Of a DNA stretch of 64,000 bases, positions 8,848 through 55,483 are shown piece after piece. The stretch is from assembly GCA_022826665.1 (NCBI GenBank), contig JAJDUK010000024.1, positions 191,844 to 255,843 on the forward strand, written 5' to 3'. A model generated the notes under the pieces. It searched no databases. It worked only from the letters and a program-made list of their open reading frames with translations, and was not told the DNA's origin. Source of the DNA: Alphaproteobacteria bacterium (GTDB taxonomy: Bacteria > Pseudomonadota > Alphaproteobacteria > UBA828). Both the position numbers and the translations under genes were made by a program. Numbering within the stretch: position 1 is the first letter of the stretch; the number at the start of each line of letters is the position of its first letter.

Positions 8848-9669
8848 TTGTCCCTCAAAGGCTTCATGTTTCCGCGCTCCGGCAGCGGCCGGGCCTCCCT
8901 GCTGCCGCCCGTGCCGTGGCATTACTCCGGCCAGATGCTCACCCTCGAATACCGGACCGATCCGGATGCGGTGGCCGAGCTGATCCCGCCCGGTCTCGCG
9001 CCGGCGGACGAGGACCCCGGCGCCGTGGCGCTCATCTGGGCGGAGTGGCAGAGCTGCTCCAACACCTTCGAGGAGCTGCTCGACCCTATCCGGGCGCAGT
9101 ACCGGGAGATGTTCGTCGTCATCCGCTGCAAGTACCGGGACCGGCACTACTCGCGCTGCGCCTACATCTGGGTCGATACCGACTACGCCATGGTGCGCGG
9201 CCATCACCAGGGCTACCCCAAGAAACTGGGCTCGATCTATCTCACCCGCCCGGTCACGGTGGGCCGGGCCGGGCCGCGCCTGGAGCCCGGCGGGCGCTTC
9301 GGCGCGAGCCTCGCCGCCAACGACCGCCGCCTGCTGCACGCGACCTTCGAGATTGAGGCCGAGAGCGACCATGCCGGCTTCGTCAACGCGCTGCCGATGG
9401 TGCACAACCGCTGGATGCCCGCGATCGAGGGCGACGGCAGCGACAGCCTGGACGAGCTGGTGACCATGTCCGCGTACGAGGGCGAGGTCGGCCGCTGCTT
9501 CCGCGGCAGCTTCGAGCTCTGGATCGGCGACTCCCCGGTGGAGGAGCTCACCCGGCTGCAGCCCCGCGAGCCGATCGCGGGCTACTGGCGCGAGGTCGCC
9601 ATGTCCTGGCGCAGCGGCACGACGCTGGAGCGGCGCAACCTCCCCGAGATCGGGGGCGCCGACGCATGA
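8848..9669 (+). CDS. acetoacetate decarboxylase-family protein
   Basis: PVPWHYSGQMLTLEYRTDPDAVAELIPPGL, GYPKKLGSIYLTRP with conserved Lys; TTG start at 8848 or ATG at 8866. Confidence 0.85.
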   Translation: MSLKGFMFPRSGSGRASLLPPVPWHYSGQMLTLEYRTDPDAVAELIPPGLAPADEDPGAVALIWAEWQSCSNTFEELLDPIRAQYREMFVVIRCKYRDRHYSRCAYIWVDTDYAMVRGHHQGYPKKLGSIYLTRPVTVGRAGPRLEPGGRFGASLAANDRRLLHATFEIEAESDHAGFVNALPMVHNRWMPAIEGDGSDSLDELVTMSAYEGEVGRCFRGSFELWIGDSPVEELTRLQPREPIAGYWREVAMSWRSGTTLERRNLPEIGGADA

Positions 9670-30776: not shown

Positions 30777-30882
30777 CTGCGGCCTCCCCTTACTCCCCTA
30801 CTCGGCAACCTGTGGTGGGCGGCCTTGTGCCGCCGCCATGCCGCGGCGACAATCCCCGCCCGCCACACGGATGGTGACGCGA

Positions 30883-32052
30883 ATGTCCGGCACTCATTAC
30901 GATCCCATCGAAATGATCGAGCGACTCGTGTCTTTCGACACGACAAGTCGCGAGTCGAACCTCGCGTTGATCCACTTCGTGCGCGACTATCTCGCCTCAC
31001 ACGGCATTGATTCTACACTTATTCATGACGAAACGGGAAACAAGGCGAATCTTTACGCCACGGTCGGCCCCAGCGATGTGCCGGGAATAGCACTCTCGGG
31101 CCACACCGACGTGGTGCCGGTGGACGGCCAGCCCTGGGATACGGACCCGTTCAGCGTCGTAGAGAAAGACGGCCGTCTCTATGGGCGCGGCACCTCGGAC
31201 ATGAAGAGCTTCAGCGCCATTGCGCTCGCCCTCGTGCCCGAGTTCACCGCCCGCCCGCTCAAGACCCCGATCCATTTTGCGCTCTCCTTCGACGAGGAGG
31301 TCGGCTGCCTCGGGGCACCGCTGATGATCGACGGGCTTGGCACCAAGCTCGGCGTCAAGCCGCATATCGTGATCGTGGGCGAGCCCACCAACATGGCGGT
31401 GGTGAACGCCCACAAGGGTGTCTACAGCTTCGAGACCCGCGTGCGCGGGCTGGAGGTCCATTCCAGCGCCACTCATCTCGGCGTGAACGCGGTGCAGTAC
31501 GCCGCGACGTTGGTCCACTTCCTGACCGAAATCGCGGACGAGATGGCCGCACGTGCCGAGCCCGAGAGCGGCTTCGACCCGCCGTATACGACGGTCCATG
31601 TCGGCACGATCCGAGGCGGAACGGCCCAGAATATCGTGCCGCTTGACTGCAAATTCACCTGGGAATACCGGCTGGTACCGGGGGCGGACCCTGACGAGAT
31701 TCGCAACCGCTTCGAGCGTTTCGCTGAGGAGACCGTGCTGCCGCGCATGCGTGCGGTCGATCCCGCGACCGGAATCTCCACGAAGGCCCGCGCCGTCGTG
31801 CCCGGCCTGGTGCCGGAGGACGGCTCGCCGGCCGAGGCGATCGTGATGGCGCTCGCGCGCACCAATCACACCGAGGTGGTGGCCTACGGCACGGAGGCCG
31901 GGCAGTTTCAGGAGGCCGGGATTCCCACCGTGATCTGCGGGCCCGGCAGCATCCGCCAGGCGCACCAGCCCAACGAATACATCGAATTGAGCGAGGTCCG
32001 CGCCTGCGAAGCCTTCATGCGCCGCCTGCTCGACGAGGTGTGTGCGGTCTGA
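30883..32052 (+). CDS. argE: acetylornithine deacetylase
   Basis: ALSGHTDVVPVDGQPWDTDPF, GRGTSDMKSF, FDEEVGCLGAP M20 motifs; alternative start 30871. Confidence 0.92.
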   Translation: MSGTHYDPIEMIERLVSFDTTSRESNLALIHFVRDYLASHGIDSTLIHDETGNKANLYATVGPSDVPGIALSGHTDVVPVDGQPWDTDPFSVVEKDGRLYGRGTSDMKSFSAIALALVPEFTARPLKTPIHFALSFDEEVGCLGAPLMIDGLGTKLGVKPHIVIVGEPTNMAVVNAHKGVYSFETRVRGLEVHSSATHLGVNAVQYAATLVHFLTEIADEMAARAEPESGFDPPYTTVHVGTIRGGTAQNIVPLDCKFTWEYRLVPGADPDEIRNRFERFAEETVLPRMRAVDPATGISTKARAVVPGLVPEDGSPAEAIVMALARTNHTEVVAYGTEAGQFQEAGIPTVICGPGSIRQAHQPNEYIELSEVRACEAFMRRLLDEVCAV

Positions 32053-32064
32053 TTGCGGGGCCGA

Positions 32065-32129
32065 TTTTCCACAGGGTCTCCACAGGTATTTGACAACGAT
32101 ATCCACAGCTTATCGACAGCTTCTCCACT
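32065..32129. promoter_or_regulatory. phased array of DnaA-box-like 9-mers (TTWTCCACA-type)
   Basis: TTTTCCACA (32065), GTCTCCACA (32076), ATATCCACA (32099), TTATCGACA (32110), TTCTCCACT (32121); starts spaced 11, 23, 11, 11 bp. Confidence 0.6.
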
Positions 32130-32150
32130 AAGGACAAAGGAACGCGAGCA

Positions 32151-34250
<2,100 letters not shown>

Positions 34251-50835: not shown

Positions 50836-52143
50836 CTACCCCCTAAAGAGCTTGCGGTCTTTGCGCTTGTTCCACGCCACCGCGAGCGGCAGGAACCAGG
50901 GGCGGCCGGTGTAGAACGGCCAGGTCGGGAAGGGCCGGCCGTCGAAGGGGCTCGCGGCCTCGGGGTCGCCCAGCACCCGGAGCGCGGTCTTGTGGCCAAG
51001 GTAGGTGCCCATGGGCACGCCGGAGCCGCACCAGCCCATGGCGTACTCGACACCGTCGTGGCTCCCGGTGTGGGGCATCATGTCGAAGGTGAAGGCGGTC
51101 TTGCCGGTCCAGCAATGGCTGATCTTCACGCCTTCCAGTGAAGGGACAACTTGCACCATGGCATCGCGGAGGATGCGGGCCTTCTGCGTGAGGTCGGCGG
51201 GCGGCTCGGCACTGAGCCCGCCGAAGAGGATGCGCGTGCTGTCCTCGTTGGGCCTGATCCAGCAGGGGGAATAGCGGTGCTCGACCATCGGCTTGCCGCC
51301 GGGCGCGATGTGCTCGACACGATCTTCGGGCAGGGGCTCGGTCGCGATCATGAAGGCGTCGACCGGTACCACACGGCGGCGCAGCCATTGGGCCGCCTTG
51401 GGCGTATAGCCGTTGGTCGCCACGATCACGTGACCGGCCTTCACTTCGCCGCGCGGCGTCGATACGCGGAAGCCGCTGTCTGAGCGCTCGATCGCCTGCA
51501 CCGGACAGTGGCCGATGATGCGTGCACCGTCTCGCGCGGCCCGCTCCAGCAGGCCCGCGTGGTAGAGGCCCGCGTGGATCGTGCCGTTGCCGCGCAGGAT
51601 CTGGCCGCCGTGGTAATGCCCCTTGCGGTAGGCCGGCGGTGCCTGGGCCGGCTCCACCATCTCCGCGTCCACCGGCACGCCGTCCTCCCGCATCATGGCG
51701 AGGTCGCGCGCGAGGCCGTCGAACACGCGCTTGGAGGGCGCCGCGATGAAGCGCCCGGTGTTGCGGTAGAAGCAGGCAATCTGCTCGCGCTCGATCAGGA
51801 AGGCCGCGTAGTCGTGGGCGGCGATCGCCGCGCGGCAGACCTCTGCGGCCCGCTCGCGCCCGAGCTTGGGCACCATGTCGCCGTACTTGTGCCAGACCTG
51901 GCGGCCCAGATAGCCGGCGTTGCGGGTGCTGGCGCCGTGGCCTGCGGCCTCGGCATCGAGGACCACCGCGTCCGTGCCCCGGCGCGCGAGCGTGAGCGCT
52001 GCGGAAAGCCCCACGTTGCCCGCCCCCACGATCACGACTTCGGCCTCCTTGGGCGGCGCCTCGTCGGTGATATCCGGCCGCGGTGCTAGGTCCCACCAAT
52101 AGGGCGTGGCCTTGAAATCCACCGTCAGCACGTCCCGCGCCAT
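50836..52143 (-). CDS. FAD-dependent amine/amino-acid oxidoreductase (DadA-like)
   Basis: EVVIVGAGNVGLSAALTLARRGTDAVVLDAE, GAS TRNAGYLGRQ region, MGWCGSGVPMGTYLG. Confidence 0.92.
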   Translation of the reverse strand: MARDVLTVDFKATPYWWDLAPRPDITDEAPPKEAEVVIVGAGNVGLSAALTLARRGTDAVVLDAEAAGHGASTRNAGYLGRQVWHKYGDMVPKLGRERAAEVCRAAIAAHDYAAFLIEREQIACFYRNTGRFIAAPSKRVFDGLARDLAMMREDGVPVDAEMVEPAQAPPAYRKGHYHGGQILRGNGTIHAGLYHAGLLERAARDGARIIGHCPVQAIERSDSGFRVSTPRGEVKAGHVIVATNGYTPKAAQWLRRRVVPVDAFMIATEPLPEDRVEHIAPGGKPMVEHRYSPCWIRPNEDSTRILFGGLSAEPPADLTQKARILRDAMVQVVPSLEGVKISHCWTGKTAFTFDMMPHTGSHDGVEYAMGWCGSGVPMGTYLGHKTALRVLGDPEAASPFDGRPFPTWPFYTGRPWFLPLAVAWNKRKDRKLFRG

Positions 52144-52556
52144 GGCGCCCTCCGGCACTATCCAGGCCGCAAACTACGGCCTAAAGGGCCCAAGAGTATG
52201 CCGGAGCATGGCCGAGGGCTATGGACTATACGACCGGACTCAATCGCGCATCCACGCCGACTCGTTAGAGAACCAACTCCCCAATTGCGGCTGCACGCTG
52301 CCTCCTAAGGTCCAAGGCATGAATACCGGGACGCGCTTGAAGCGCAGCTATTTCATACCGCATCGCGCTCTAACACGCGCACCGTCATGACGACCGAAGT
52401 GAATCGTGACGCGGCTTCACCTCTCAATAGACTCAGAGCAACCAACCCAGAAGCACTCTCGCGCATTACTCACATATGTGCGCTGGACTTCGTGCTGCTT
52501 CAACCTCAACAACCTGCGCCTGTTTCTGGACCAGTAGCTGGAACACCACGCGGCAC

Positions 52557-54086
52557 CTATTCCAACCCAAACGCTTTAACTGACCCTGTTTCCAGATATC
52601 TCTTCGAATGCTCCTTCTGCCAACTGTAACGATACAACTTAGACTTCACTGCATCCAGTGATAGAAATTCTCTCAACCGACTTTTTGCTTTCTTCTTAAT
52701 GTCTATTTTTGCTCTCTTCCCCATTTTCGGCTTGTTAAAGTTTCGTTCTGCAGCTTCCGCTAGTGCCCAGCCCTCCCCATATATTGTCTTTGCAATTTCT
52801 TGCTTACCGACTTGATAGGCGTACCTGTTCGTTAGTGTGACGAGAATATCCCGAGCCTTTATCATTTCCTTAATCGCCTCGGTCGCCCCTGGCCCCTCCC
52901 AATCCAATTGCTCCGCCACCAGAATCGACACACCTCGATAGTAGTGAAAGTCTGCTAACACCGCCATGTATCTTTTTTTTGCTCTCACTCCACTAATTTT
53001 CGATCGCAGACCCTCAAGTCTCTGCCGTGTCTTCTCGCTCGGATGTCCCATTATGAACCGCCAGCCCGCTTCACTGATCGCGTCATCCTCGTCAATCGCC
53101 GCATTCAACATTTCTAACCAGACCATATCTAAATGCCGATCACTCATGAACATGTCGTTTCTGGGCAACGGGTCAGCTCTTGAAATGGCCCACATTGCAC
53201 CCAAGCGTTCCCAATATGAACCGCCTTTTTTTAGCACTAATTCATTCAAGACTTCGGGCTTCTGCCAGTGGTGATCTCTAAGAAAACGTCGCGCACTATG
53301 CCTAACTCGCGCATCAGCGGAACTTAATGACTGCCGCGCTGCACGAAAGTCCAATAATTGGTTGTCACTGACATTCTCGATTTCTTCCGCACGCGCCTGC
53401 CCTATTAGCCTCAAAGCTGTTGATCGTCCATTTGGGAAATCTACTACCGGTGAGCTCGAGTACAAGTGCACATCCTTAGTGGTACATCGGATTAGACGAT
53501 CGTTCATTGTAGGAATACTGATCAATGCTGTTTGCAGATTGAACTGCATCTCTCGATGGTAGCTGCTGTTTAGCCCAGCTTCCTCACGCTTTACTTTACA
53601 ATACACTGCGAACTCACTTTTTTTTCCATTTATTTTTTTCTCTCCTATGAACATGAACTTGATCATTTTTGGCACTTCGTCGCTTACCATATTGTTATAG
53701 ACCCAATGGACATCCTTCCTCCCTTGGGGCCCGATTCGGCTTACTCGCGAAAATAGGTGGCCGTGTTCGGTATCAACTTCCACTGTTTGGTCGACTTTGG
53801 TAAAGGCCCCACGAACGATCAACTCTGTTTGGTTATCCTGATGCACCTGCTTGCTCTCCACCAATGTGTAAATCCATCCTCCCGTTCCAACTAGCAACAT
53901 CAACACCACGACAGACCAAACAGACATATGCAGCCAGTCGTAGAGCCTTTCAGTCTTCGGATCGCTTACGTCTTTTTTGGCCCGCGAGATCATTCTTGGA
54001 ATTATGCGATGACCAAATAGAAGGAGCAACAATGCCACACCAATGGGTCCATAAGTTAGGCCAGTCTGGAGGACATCAATTTGCAT
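52557..54086 (-). CDS. hypothetical two-TM protein with possible HEAT-like helical repeats
   Basis: Two N-terminal TM helices (GPIGVALLLLLFG; VWSVVVLMLLVGTGGWIYTLV), then soluble region with LSSADARVRHSARRFLRDHHWQKPEV; AT-rich relative to surroundings. Confidence 0.75.
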   Translation of the reverse strand: MQIDVLQTGLTYGPIGVALLLLLFGHRIIPRMISRAKKDVSDPKTERLYDWLHMSVWSVVVLMLLVGTGGWIYTLVESKQVHQDNQTELIVRGAFTKVDQTVEVDTEHGHLFSRVSRIGPQGRKDVHWVYNNMVSDEVPKMIKFMFIGEKKINGKKSEFAVYCKVKREEAGLNSSYHREMQFNLQTALISIPTMNDRLIRCTTKDVHLYSSSPVVDFPNGRSTALRLIGQARAEEIENVSDNQLLDFRAARQSLSSADARVRHSARRFLRDHHWQKPEVLNELVLKKGGSYWERLGAMWAISRADPLPRNDMFMSDRHLDMVWLEMLNAAIDEDDAISEAGWRFIMGHPSEKTRQRLEGLRSKISGVRAKKRYMAVLADFHYYRGVSILVAEQLDWEGPGATEAIKEMIKARDILVTLTNRYAYQVGKQEIAKTIYGEGWALAEAAERNFNKPKMGKRAKIDIKKKAKSRLREFLSLDAVKSKLYRYSWQKEHSKRYLETGSVKAFGLE

Positions 54087-54198
54087 ACTTTCGCCCCTCT
54101 GTTGCTAACGTAAACCTAGTGTTGTCCGATCAGTTATTCTCCGAGTAGTGTCGTCCATTAAAAATTGGAATATTTCGAGTGGTGCTGTTTCGTTTCCT

Positions 54199-55365
54199 TC
54201 ATAGTTGAACTATTCCTTCAGGACACCCATTTTCACGACAGTCCTTAGTCATCCATCTGTCCCTTTCGCGCAAAATGCGACTATAAAGTTGCATATTTCC
54301 TCTATGAGTATAGTAATACCAGTGATCCCACCATTCCTCGGGATTGTCGCCGGATATGTGTAGATCGTGCTCCGCAAGCCACGTCATGAGCGGCTCGCCG
54401 TCGATCTGGAGATCGATCCAGCGCTCGGTGGGTCTGCGGGCCTCGAGGCCGTTGTGGCCGATAACCTGGGAATTGAAAGAGAACAGACCTCGTGGGCCGA
54501 AGTTTTCTGCCAAGACGTCGAGCACTGCGTTTTCGCGGCTCACGATGTTGTAGAAGTGAGGCCCCACATCCGCCGCCCACTTCTGTTGCCTGACCTCCCT
54601 CATGAGGGCGGTGTACATCTGGCGAGCGTCGTCCGTGTACTCGGACCCGCCGAGCAGGATGACGCGGCCGATACGGCTCAGGAGGGGAAGCCTGTTCTCG
54701 GCAGCGATACTCAGAGCCCCGATCACGACCACCGAGCCAAGACTGTGGCAAAAGATGTCGATCGGCTGGTTCTTGAATTCCTTTAGCTGGGATAGGGCCT
54801 GCAGAGCGCGAAGCAACGGCCACGAGGCCTTGCGGCCCAGGTCGTACGCGCGCGCGTAGAAATTCTGCTGGTGCGACAGGAGTGAAGAGGCGAATCCCGG
54901 CTGGCTGTACCAGCCGAAAGCGATGGCCACGCCGTTCTTGCCCTTGTCACTGCGTTTGAAGCAGAGTTGCCGGGGCCAACTGGTCGTGTGGTGGCGAATC
55001 TCGATTAGCTCGTCGTACTCCTTGAAGTGAAAGACCCTCCCATGGGGATTGTCGGTCTCCTTCGGGTCGCCTGTGACCGCGTTTCTCGGATCGTAAAGAA
55101 AGCCATGCACCATCACAGTCACGGGCGCACCGGCCACGTAGTCGGCGGCCTCGCTGGATGCCTTGAACTGAAGGTAATCGCAGAGTTCGGGCGAGGGAGT
55201 GAGCGCACTCTCGGGCGGCGAGTCCGGGCGGGGCGGATTCACGCCGACTTCGAGCAAGCCGCGCTTCGTGCCATTGCTTTGGACGTACTTGGTATCGACG
55301 AGCGCGCCCAAGCCGGTCGGTGCGTAGAGACGGTCCTTGATGAGTGTCAGGCGGATGATCGACAT
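54199..55365 (-). CDS. alpha/beta hydrolase (lipase/esterase-like)
   Basis: PVTVMVHGFLYDPR oxyanion region, DIFCHSLGSVVVIGAL nucleophile elbow, RVILLGGSEYTDDAR. Confidence 0.85.
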   Translation of the reverse strand: MSIIRLTLIKDRLYAPTGLGALVDTKYVQSNGTKRGLLEVGVNPPRPDSPPESALTPSPELCDYLQFKASSEAADYVAGAPVTVMVHGFLYDPRNAVTGDPKETDNPHGRVFHFKEYDELIEIRHHTTSWPRQLCFKRSDKGKNGVAIAFGWYSQPGFASSLLSHQQNFYARAYDLGRKASWPLLRALQALSQLKEFKNQPIDIFCHSLGSVVVIGALSIAAENRLPLLSRIGRVILLGGSEYTDDARQMYTALMREVRQQKWAADVGPHFYNIVSRENAVLDVLAENFGPRGLFSFNSQVIGHNGLEARRPTERWIDLQIDGEPLMTWLAEHDLHISGDNPEEWWDHWYYYTHRGNMQLYSRILRERDRWMTKDCRENGCPEGIVQL

Positions 55366-55483
55366 CTCACCGCCCTCTCACCCGTTGAAACGCTGCCAAA
55401 CGGGAGGCGCTTCGACATCATCCGGAGGGTGCGATCCCTTCACCGTCGTCATGCTCAACCGGCCCTGATCTGCGCTAACTAAG

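What the first reader, a model, noticed from the sequence alone, without database searches (positions are those of the whole stretch)
32065..32129. Helically phased DnaA-box-like array upstream of the FadB-like gene
The argE/fadB-like intergenic gap contains TTTTCCACA, GTCTCCACA, ATATCCACA, TTATCGACA and TTCTCCACT, with starts at 32065, 32076, 32099, 32110 and 32121. The 23-bp gap holds a degenerate unit TATTTGACA at 32087, giving six units with an ~11-bp period. Most core units are one mismatch from the DnaA box TTATCCACA. One-helical-turn phasing on a single face suggests cooperative DnaA binding. This could be part of an origin, a DnaA titration site, or a DnaA-controlled promoter; a TTGACA lies inside the array at 32090. 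No convincing AT-rich unwinding element is visible next to it, which argues against a complete oriC.
Basis: partly seen in the sequence, partly recalled or inferred. Interest (0 to 1): 0.72.

Follow-up and report, generated by a model that had tools for sequence, protein, structure and literature searches.

The report
DnaA-box array before one fat-burning gene
In one genus of uncultured bacteria, a ladder of binding sites for the DNA-replication starter protein DnaA, one per helical turn, sits directly before a single fatty-acid-breakdown gene, which suggests that the replication initiator controls this metabolic gene rather than marking a replication origin.

Summary
The array is real: five DnaA-box-like 9-mers (three with 1 mismatch, two with 2) on the + strand at 32065-32129, plus a degenerate unit at 32087; pitch 11,11,12,11,11 bp. 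Simulated 64-kb sequences gave at most 3 such boxes in 65 bp (5 observed). It does not look like an origin: no GC-skew switch, no AT-rich element, not shared beyond the genus.

All seven genomes with the fadB-like orthologue carry a 5-8 unit array just before its ATG. The 42-unit consensus is TTATCCACAGG, also without the window's genome. The array follows fadB, not argE: in G002, where the two genes lie on different contigs, it sits before fadB; G004 has argE but neither fadB nor array. A three-unit pattern over eight genomes hits only this site (14 of 14).

Head-to-tail sites 2 bp apart are the design of E. coli oriC low-affinity DnaA arrays. A class-wide scan found similar arrays in origin-like gaps, one at the Caulobacter-type hemE/COG1806 locus. 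Best reading: a fadB cis-element on which DnaA assembles cooperatively, probably repressing. Main rival: an OmpR/PhoB-family regulator, which also binds 11-bp direct repeats. Binding and effect are untested; base-by-base constraint is weak.

The parts
32065..32073 (+). array unit 1, TTTTCCACA (followed by GG)
   Evidence: 1 mismatch to TTATCCACA; 2-unit pattern hit
32076..32084 (+). array unit 2, GTCTCCACA (followed by GG)
   Evidence: 2 mismatches
32087..32095 (+). degenerate unit 3, TATTTGACA (contains TTGACA at 32090)
   Evidence: 4 mismatches; in phase; the orthologous unit is TTATCCACA-like in G003, G001 and G005
32099..32107 (+). array unit 4, ATATCCACA (followed by GC), after a 12-bp step
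   Evidence: 1 mismatch
32110..32118 (+). array unit 5, TTATCGACA (followed by GC)
   Evidence: 1 mismatch
32121..32129 (+). array unit 6, TTCTCCACT, at -30 from the fadB-like ATG
   Evidence: 2 mismatches; last unit at -30/-31 in six of seven genomes
32151..34250 (+). fadB-like gene: enoyl-CoA hydratase / 3-hydroxyacyl-CoA dehydrogenase fusion, 699 aa
   Evidence: Pfam ECH_1, 3HCDH_N, 3HCDH; array present upstream in all 7 genomes with the orthologue
30877..32052 (+). upstream M20-family (argE-like) gene; keeps no array where fadB is not next to it
   Evidence: Pfam Peptidase_M20; downstream sequence compared in 18 genomes

Best explanation
A cis-regulatory DnaA array of the fadB-like gene. 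Five to eight weak DnaA boxes in one orientation, each 9 bp plus a 2-bp spacer (11-bp pitch), put DnaA monomers on one face of the helix so that they load cooperatively, as on the low-affinity arrays of E. coli oriC. The array fills the argE-fadB gap and ends about 20 nt before the start codon, so a DnaA oligomer there would cover the promoter or block polymerase coming from argE. The most likely effect is repression of fadB when active DnaA is abundant, linking a beta-oxidation enzyme to the replication cycle. Shown: the array, its phase, consensus, conservation in the genus and linkage to fadB. Inferred: binding by DnaA, cooperativity, sign of regulation, dependence on the nucleotide state of DnaA.
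For: Consensus of 42 units from 7 genomes is TTATCCACAGG, unchanged when the window's own genome is left out. Present in 7/7 genomes with the orthologue; absent upstream of all 77 FadB-like homologues from outside the genus and downstream of argE in G004 and in G002, where fadB is on another contig with the array and 24 nt of the argE tail. A 3-unit core pattern finds only this site in 8 genomes, 14 of 14 hits. The genome encodes DnaA with a GKRDHTTVLYA motif in domain IV. E. coli oriC arrays: low-affinity sites exactly 2 bp apart, same direction, same face (PMC4451416). Class scan: similar 11-bp arrays between COG1806 and hemE in G359, which is the Caulobacter origin locus (PMC1914354), and in AT-rich gaps of G123 and G068. 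At box position 9 the commonest non-A base is C (11 of 14), which suits the relaxed E. coli consensus (own knowledge).
Against: No binding or expression data. Only 12 of 42 units meet the strict relaxed E. coli consensus YYHTMCRHM; position 6 is G/A/T in 9 units. Units differ between close species as much as 4-fold sites do (0.28 against 0.23-0.28), and the position-specific constraint test is marginal (p 0.018 with all units, not significant without one). No promoter was recognised, so the sign of regulation is a guess.
Confidence: 0.55

Rival explanations
1. A direct-repeat site for an OmpR/PhoB-family response regulator. Such regulators bind 7-bp motifs in head-to-tail repeats of 11-bp pitch, often more than two per site, and ArcA does so at beta-oxidation genes.
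For: M. tuberculosis PhoP motif TCACAGC-N4-TCACAGC has the same pitch and shares C6-A7-C8-A9-G10 of the unit (PMC4832192). ArcA sites carry 2-5 repeats at 11 bp and repress fad operons (PMC3798270). A7 and C8 are among the least variable positions and G10, outside the 9-mer, is kept in 36 of 42 units. One site before a metabolic gene is a normal regulator layout.
Against: The first four positions (TTNT) carry as much information as the core, although PhoP leaves the spacer free of a motif; pos 5 is C (32/42), not T, and pos 11 is G more often than C. The consensus equals the DnaA box at 9 of 9 positions. No second promoter with 3 units exists in 8 genomes, unlike a usual regulon.
Confidence: 0.2
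2. A DnaA titration or DnaA-nucleotide-state site (like datA or DARS) that happens to lie beside fadB.
For: One cluster per genome, cooperative-looking, conserved in the genus.
Against: It lies before fadB and not behind argE when the two are apart, is anchored near the fadB start codon, and IHF-type partner sites were not looked for. datA and DARS do not depend on a gene start (own knowledge).
Confidence: 0.08
3. A decaying 11-bp minisatellite without present function.
For: Unit divergence is near that of 4-fold sites; mean match of units to the 9-mer is about 78%, as expected for neutral decay of an ancestral perfect array; copy number varies; constraint test weak.
Against: Pitch and orientation kept in all seven genomes; non-uniform decay by position (A3 19/42 against T4, A7, C8 38/42); exact DnaA-box consensus.
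Confidence: 0.14
4. Part of a replication origin.
For: Similar arrays occur in origin-like gaps of other Alphaproteobacteria.
Against: Cumulative GC skew of contig C13 falls without a switch at the array. Highest AT in any 40 bp nearby is 57.5%, against 82.5% at the C33 cluster. C33:60969-61074 scores higher in mixed orientation and lies at a weak skew minimum. Not in other genera; missing from G004.
Confidence: 0.03

Closest known systems
Low-affinity DnaA arrays of E. coli oriC (R5M-tau2-I1-I2 and C3-C2-I3-C1)
   Same: weak boxes, same orientation, 2 bp apart, one face of the helix (PMC4451416)
   Different: here 5-8 units before a metabolic gene, no strong anchor box or IHF site shown, no unwinding element
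DnaA-regulated promoters (dnaA, and hdaA in Caulobacter)
   Same: DnaA boxes next to a gene start; DnaA as activator or repressor (PMC8203912)
   Different: a long phased array at a beta-oxidation gene; the fad link was not found in the review or in a paper search
ArcA / PhoP-type direct-repeat sites (OmpR/PhoB family)
   Same: 11-bp pitch, several repeats, control of carbon oxidation (PMC3798270, PMC4832192)
   Different: consensus is the DnaA box; single site per genome
datA / DARS and B. subtilis DnaA-box clusters
   Same: DnaA-box clusters away from oriC
   Different: this one is linked to one gene and in one orientation

Membership tests
DnaA-box array | repeated 9-mers matching TTATNCACA/TTATCCACA above chance | tested here: met
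DnaA-box array | consensus conserved in relatives | tested here: met
   7 of 7 genomes with the orthologue; consensus TTATCCACAGG without own genome
DnaA-box array | strict relaxed E. coli consensus in each unit | tested here: inconclusive
   12 of 42 units
DnaA-box array | binding by DnaA | not testable with these tools
   needs footprint or ChIP
oriC low-affinity array architecture | same orientation, 2-bp spacing | tested here: met
   pitch 11,11,12,11,11; one 3-bp spacer
chromosomal origin (oriC) | GC-skew switch at the site | tested here: not met
chromosomal origin (oriC) | adjacent AT-rich unwinding element | tested here: not met
   max 57.5% AT in 40 bp
chromosomal origin (oriC) | hemE/COG1806 neighbourhood usual in Alphaproteobacteria | tested here: not met
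   hemE is on contig C14
chromosomal origin (oriC) | highest copy number in growing cells | not testable with these tools
   no reads
DnaA-regulated gene | boxes remain with the regulated gene | tested here: met
DnaA-regulated gene | expression changes with DnaA | not testable with these tools
   no expression data
OmpR/PhoB-family direct-repeat site | 11-bp direct repeats | tested here: met
OmpR/PhoB-family direct-repeat site | motif of a named regulator (PhoP TCACAGC) | tested here: inconclusive
   5 of 7 positions of the majority unit agree
OmpR/PhoB-family direct-repeat site | other promoters with the same repeats | tested here: not met
   3-unit pattern only at fadB in 8 genomes; 2-unit only there and at C33 in own genome
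datA/DARS-type site | effect on DnaA nucleotide state, IHF dependence | not testable with these tools
   none

The most novel reading that the evidence does not exclude
The replication initiator directly switches a beta-oxidation gene through an oriC-type cooperative array, so that fatty-acid breakdown in this genus is set by the amount or ATP state of DnaA; the array would be a transcriptional read-out of the same low-affinity assembly that times initiation.
Probability: 0.35. Interest if true: 0.7.

Novelty: new variant of a known kind. Interest (0 to 1): 0.42.

Why it matters
DnaA is known as a transcription factor, and ordered low-affinity arrays are known in E. coli oriC; a long phased array tied to one metabolic gene would join the two and give a natural reporter of cooperative DnaA assembly outside an origin. 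It would also suggest a direct wire from replication control to lipid catabolism. [quoted passage not shown] coli, so the natural variation of seven arrays (42 units) is useful data.

Tried and rejected
Origin: rejected on skew, AT content and distribution. Sigma-70 promoter through TTGACA: no -10, not conserved. RNA family: no Rfam match in 31900-32300. Plasmid-derived iterons: no similar plasmid DNA. C33 nifU-upstream cluster as a proven oriC: boxes are partly conserved in the genus but not in other genera or in G006, so it stays a candidate only. The hemE/COG1806 gap of the own genome has only weak boxes and no skew switch. An early alignment of congeners used the wrong strand for three loci and was replaced. 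A position-constraint test was only marginal. A literature search for DnaA and beta-oxidation gave nothing relevant.

Full report
Observation. Three are one mismatch from TTATCCACA and two are two mismatches away; the unit at 32087 has four mismatches and is placed by phase. The steps are 11, 11, 12, 11, 11 bp. The window has only six boxes within one mismatch in 64 kb and half of them are here. In 120 simulated 64-kb sequences with the same dinucleotide make-up, no 65-bp stretch had more than three boxes on one strand; here there are five.

Genome context. The window is contig C13:191844-255843 of a 4.63-Mb draft genome in 106 contigs. Its congeners include records named Rhodospirillales bacterium MAGs. 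The array lies in the gap of about 100 bp between an M20-family (argE-like) gene and a gene for an enoyl-CoA hydratase / 3-hydroxyacyl-CoA dehydrogenase fusion, both on the + strand. In the whole genome, a two-unit pattern with up to three mismatches is found at the array (three overlapping hits) and at one other place, C33:60968, with no hit of the reversed control.

Conservation. Seven genomes of the genus, the window's included, hold the fadB-like orthologue (82-93% identity to it), and every one has the array upstream. Parsing gave 42 units, 5 to 8 per genome, with consensus TTATCCACAGG, the same without the window's genome. The last unit starts at -30 or -31 from the ATG in six genomes; in the seventh (G002) the scored chain ends at -43 and a degenerate TTATTCAGC follows at -31. 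With a matrix from the six other genomes the window's 5-unit chain scores 62 bits; the next best place in 655 kb (contigs C13, C14, C33, both strands) scores 16. A three-unit core pattern with up to two mismatches over the eight genomes of the genus gives 14 hits, all in this array; the reversed control gave one.

The array belongs to fadB. In G004 the argE gene is present (90% identity) but neither fadB nor the array is in the assembly. In G002 the argE gene on contig C39 has no array behind it, while fadB on contig C82 has the array and the last 24 nt of an argE-like end. The caveat is that G004 and G002 are incomplete drafts (93% and 67%). None of 77 FadB-like homologues from outside the genus has such an array, nor does argE in the 11 genomes of other genera of the family that were compared.

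Not an origin. Cumulative GC skew over C13 falls on both sides of the array without a switch. No 40-bp stretch near it exceeds 57.5% AT, whereas the C33 cluster reaches 82.5%. The C33 cluster (four boxes within one mismatch in 106 bp, both orientations, upstream of a nifU-like gene) lies at a weak local skew minimum, but it is poorly conserved even within the genus, so the true origin is not settled. The classical hemE/COG1806 gap is on contig C14 with weak boxes and no skew switch.

What binds it. For DnaA: the consensus is the DnaA box at nine of nine positions; the genome's DnaA has a DHTTVLYA-type domain IV motif; and head-to-tail low-affinity sites exactly two bp apart on one face of the helix are the described layout of E. 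coli oriC (PMC4451416). A scan of 387 genomes of the class for three such units found arrays in several origin-like places: in G359 between the COG1806 kinase/pyrophosphorylase gene and hemE, which is the Caulobacter origin locus (PMC1914354); in G123 as two opposed TTATCAACAGG arrays; in G068 in an AT-rich gap with many boxes; and in G153 as at least 20 identical TTATGCACAGG units. Some other hits of that scan are probably chance. That those loci are origins is inferred from context.

For an OmpR/PhoB-family regulator: such proteins also bind 11-bp direct repeats, PhoP of M. tuberculosis at TCACAGC-N4-TCACAGC (PMC4832192) and ArcA at sites with two to five repeats, including control of fad operons (PMC3798270). 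The unit shares CACAG with PhoP. Against it stand the strong TTNT half, C rather than T at position 5, and the lack of any other three-unit site in the genus. I keep this rival at 0.2.

Constraint. Pairwise differences between orthologous units of four close genomes are lowest at T4, A7 and C8 (0.11, 0.08, 0.00), but the average over the unit (0.28) is no lower than at 4-fold sites of fadB (0.23-0.28), and a permutation test gives p = 0.018 with all six units and no significance without the unit at the slip. So selection on single bases is not shown; what is kept is the array as such. A decaying minisatellite is therefore not excluded (0.14).

Mechanism. The array ends about 20 nt before the start codon and fills the gap, so a DnaA oligomer would sit on the fadB promoter or in the path of polymerase coming from argE. 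Repression is the simplest outcome; activation is possible. No promoter was recognised. Every step from binding on is inferred.

Verdict. A real, genus-conserved, single-locus array, most likely a DnaA-responsive control element of a beta-oxidation gene, new as a combination of known parts.

Noticed in passing
own genome C33:60969-61074 (L033 about 8960-9080): Cluster of four DnaA boxes within one mismatch in both orientations, 82% AT, upstream of a nifU-like gene; best origin candidate by box score, but poorly conserved in the genus and absent in other genera.
   Followed up: partly
L267 end and L268 start (G153 C4 and C28): At least 20 identical TTATGCACAGG units at 11-bp pitch between a fabI-type enoyl-ACP reductase gene and a HAD phosphatase gene; both contigs break inside the array.
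   Followed up: partly
L269:1081-1350 (G123 C2): Two opposed arrays of TTATCAACAGG units in an AT-rich gap near a comEC-type gene; looks like an origin.
   Followed up: partly
L274:2455-2486 (G359 C45): 11-bp DnaA-box array inside the hemE/COG1806 gap, the Caulobacter-type origin locus.
   Followed up: partly
L273:2829-2990 (G068 C58): Ten or so TTATNCACA-like boxes, several at 11-bp pitch, in an AT-rich gap between an argC-type gene and an M23 peptidase gene.
   Followed up: partly
L185, L276, L277 (G002 and G004): In both genomes the sequence behind argE differs from the other congeners from about the last codons of argE on; a possible insertion hot spot at the argE end.
   Followed up: no
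window 52000-55400: Low-GC patch (about 51% against 67%) with two genes of unknown function (509 and 388 aa, - strand), the second with a lipase-like GHSLGS-type motif; possibly acquired DNA.
   Followed up: no
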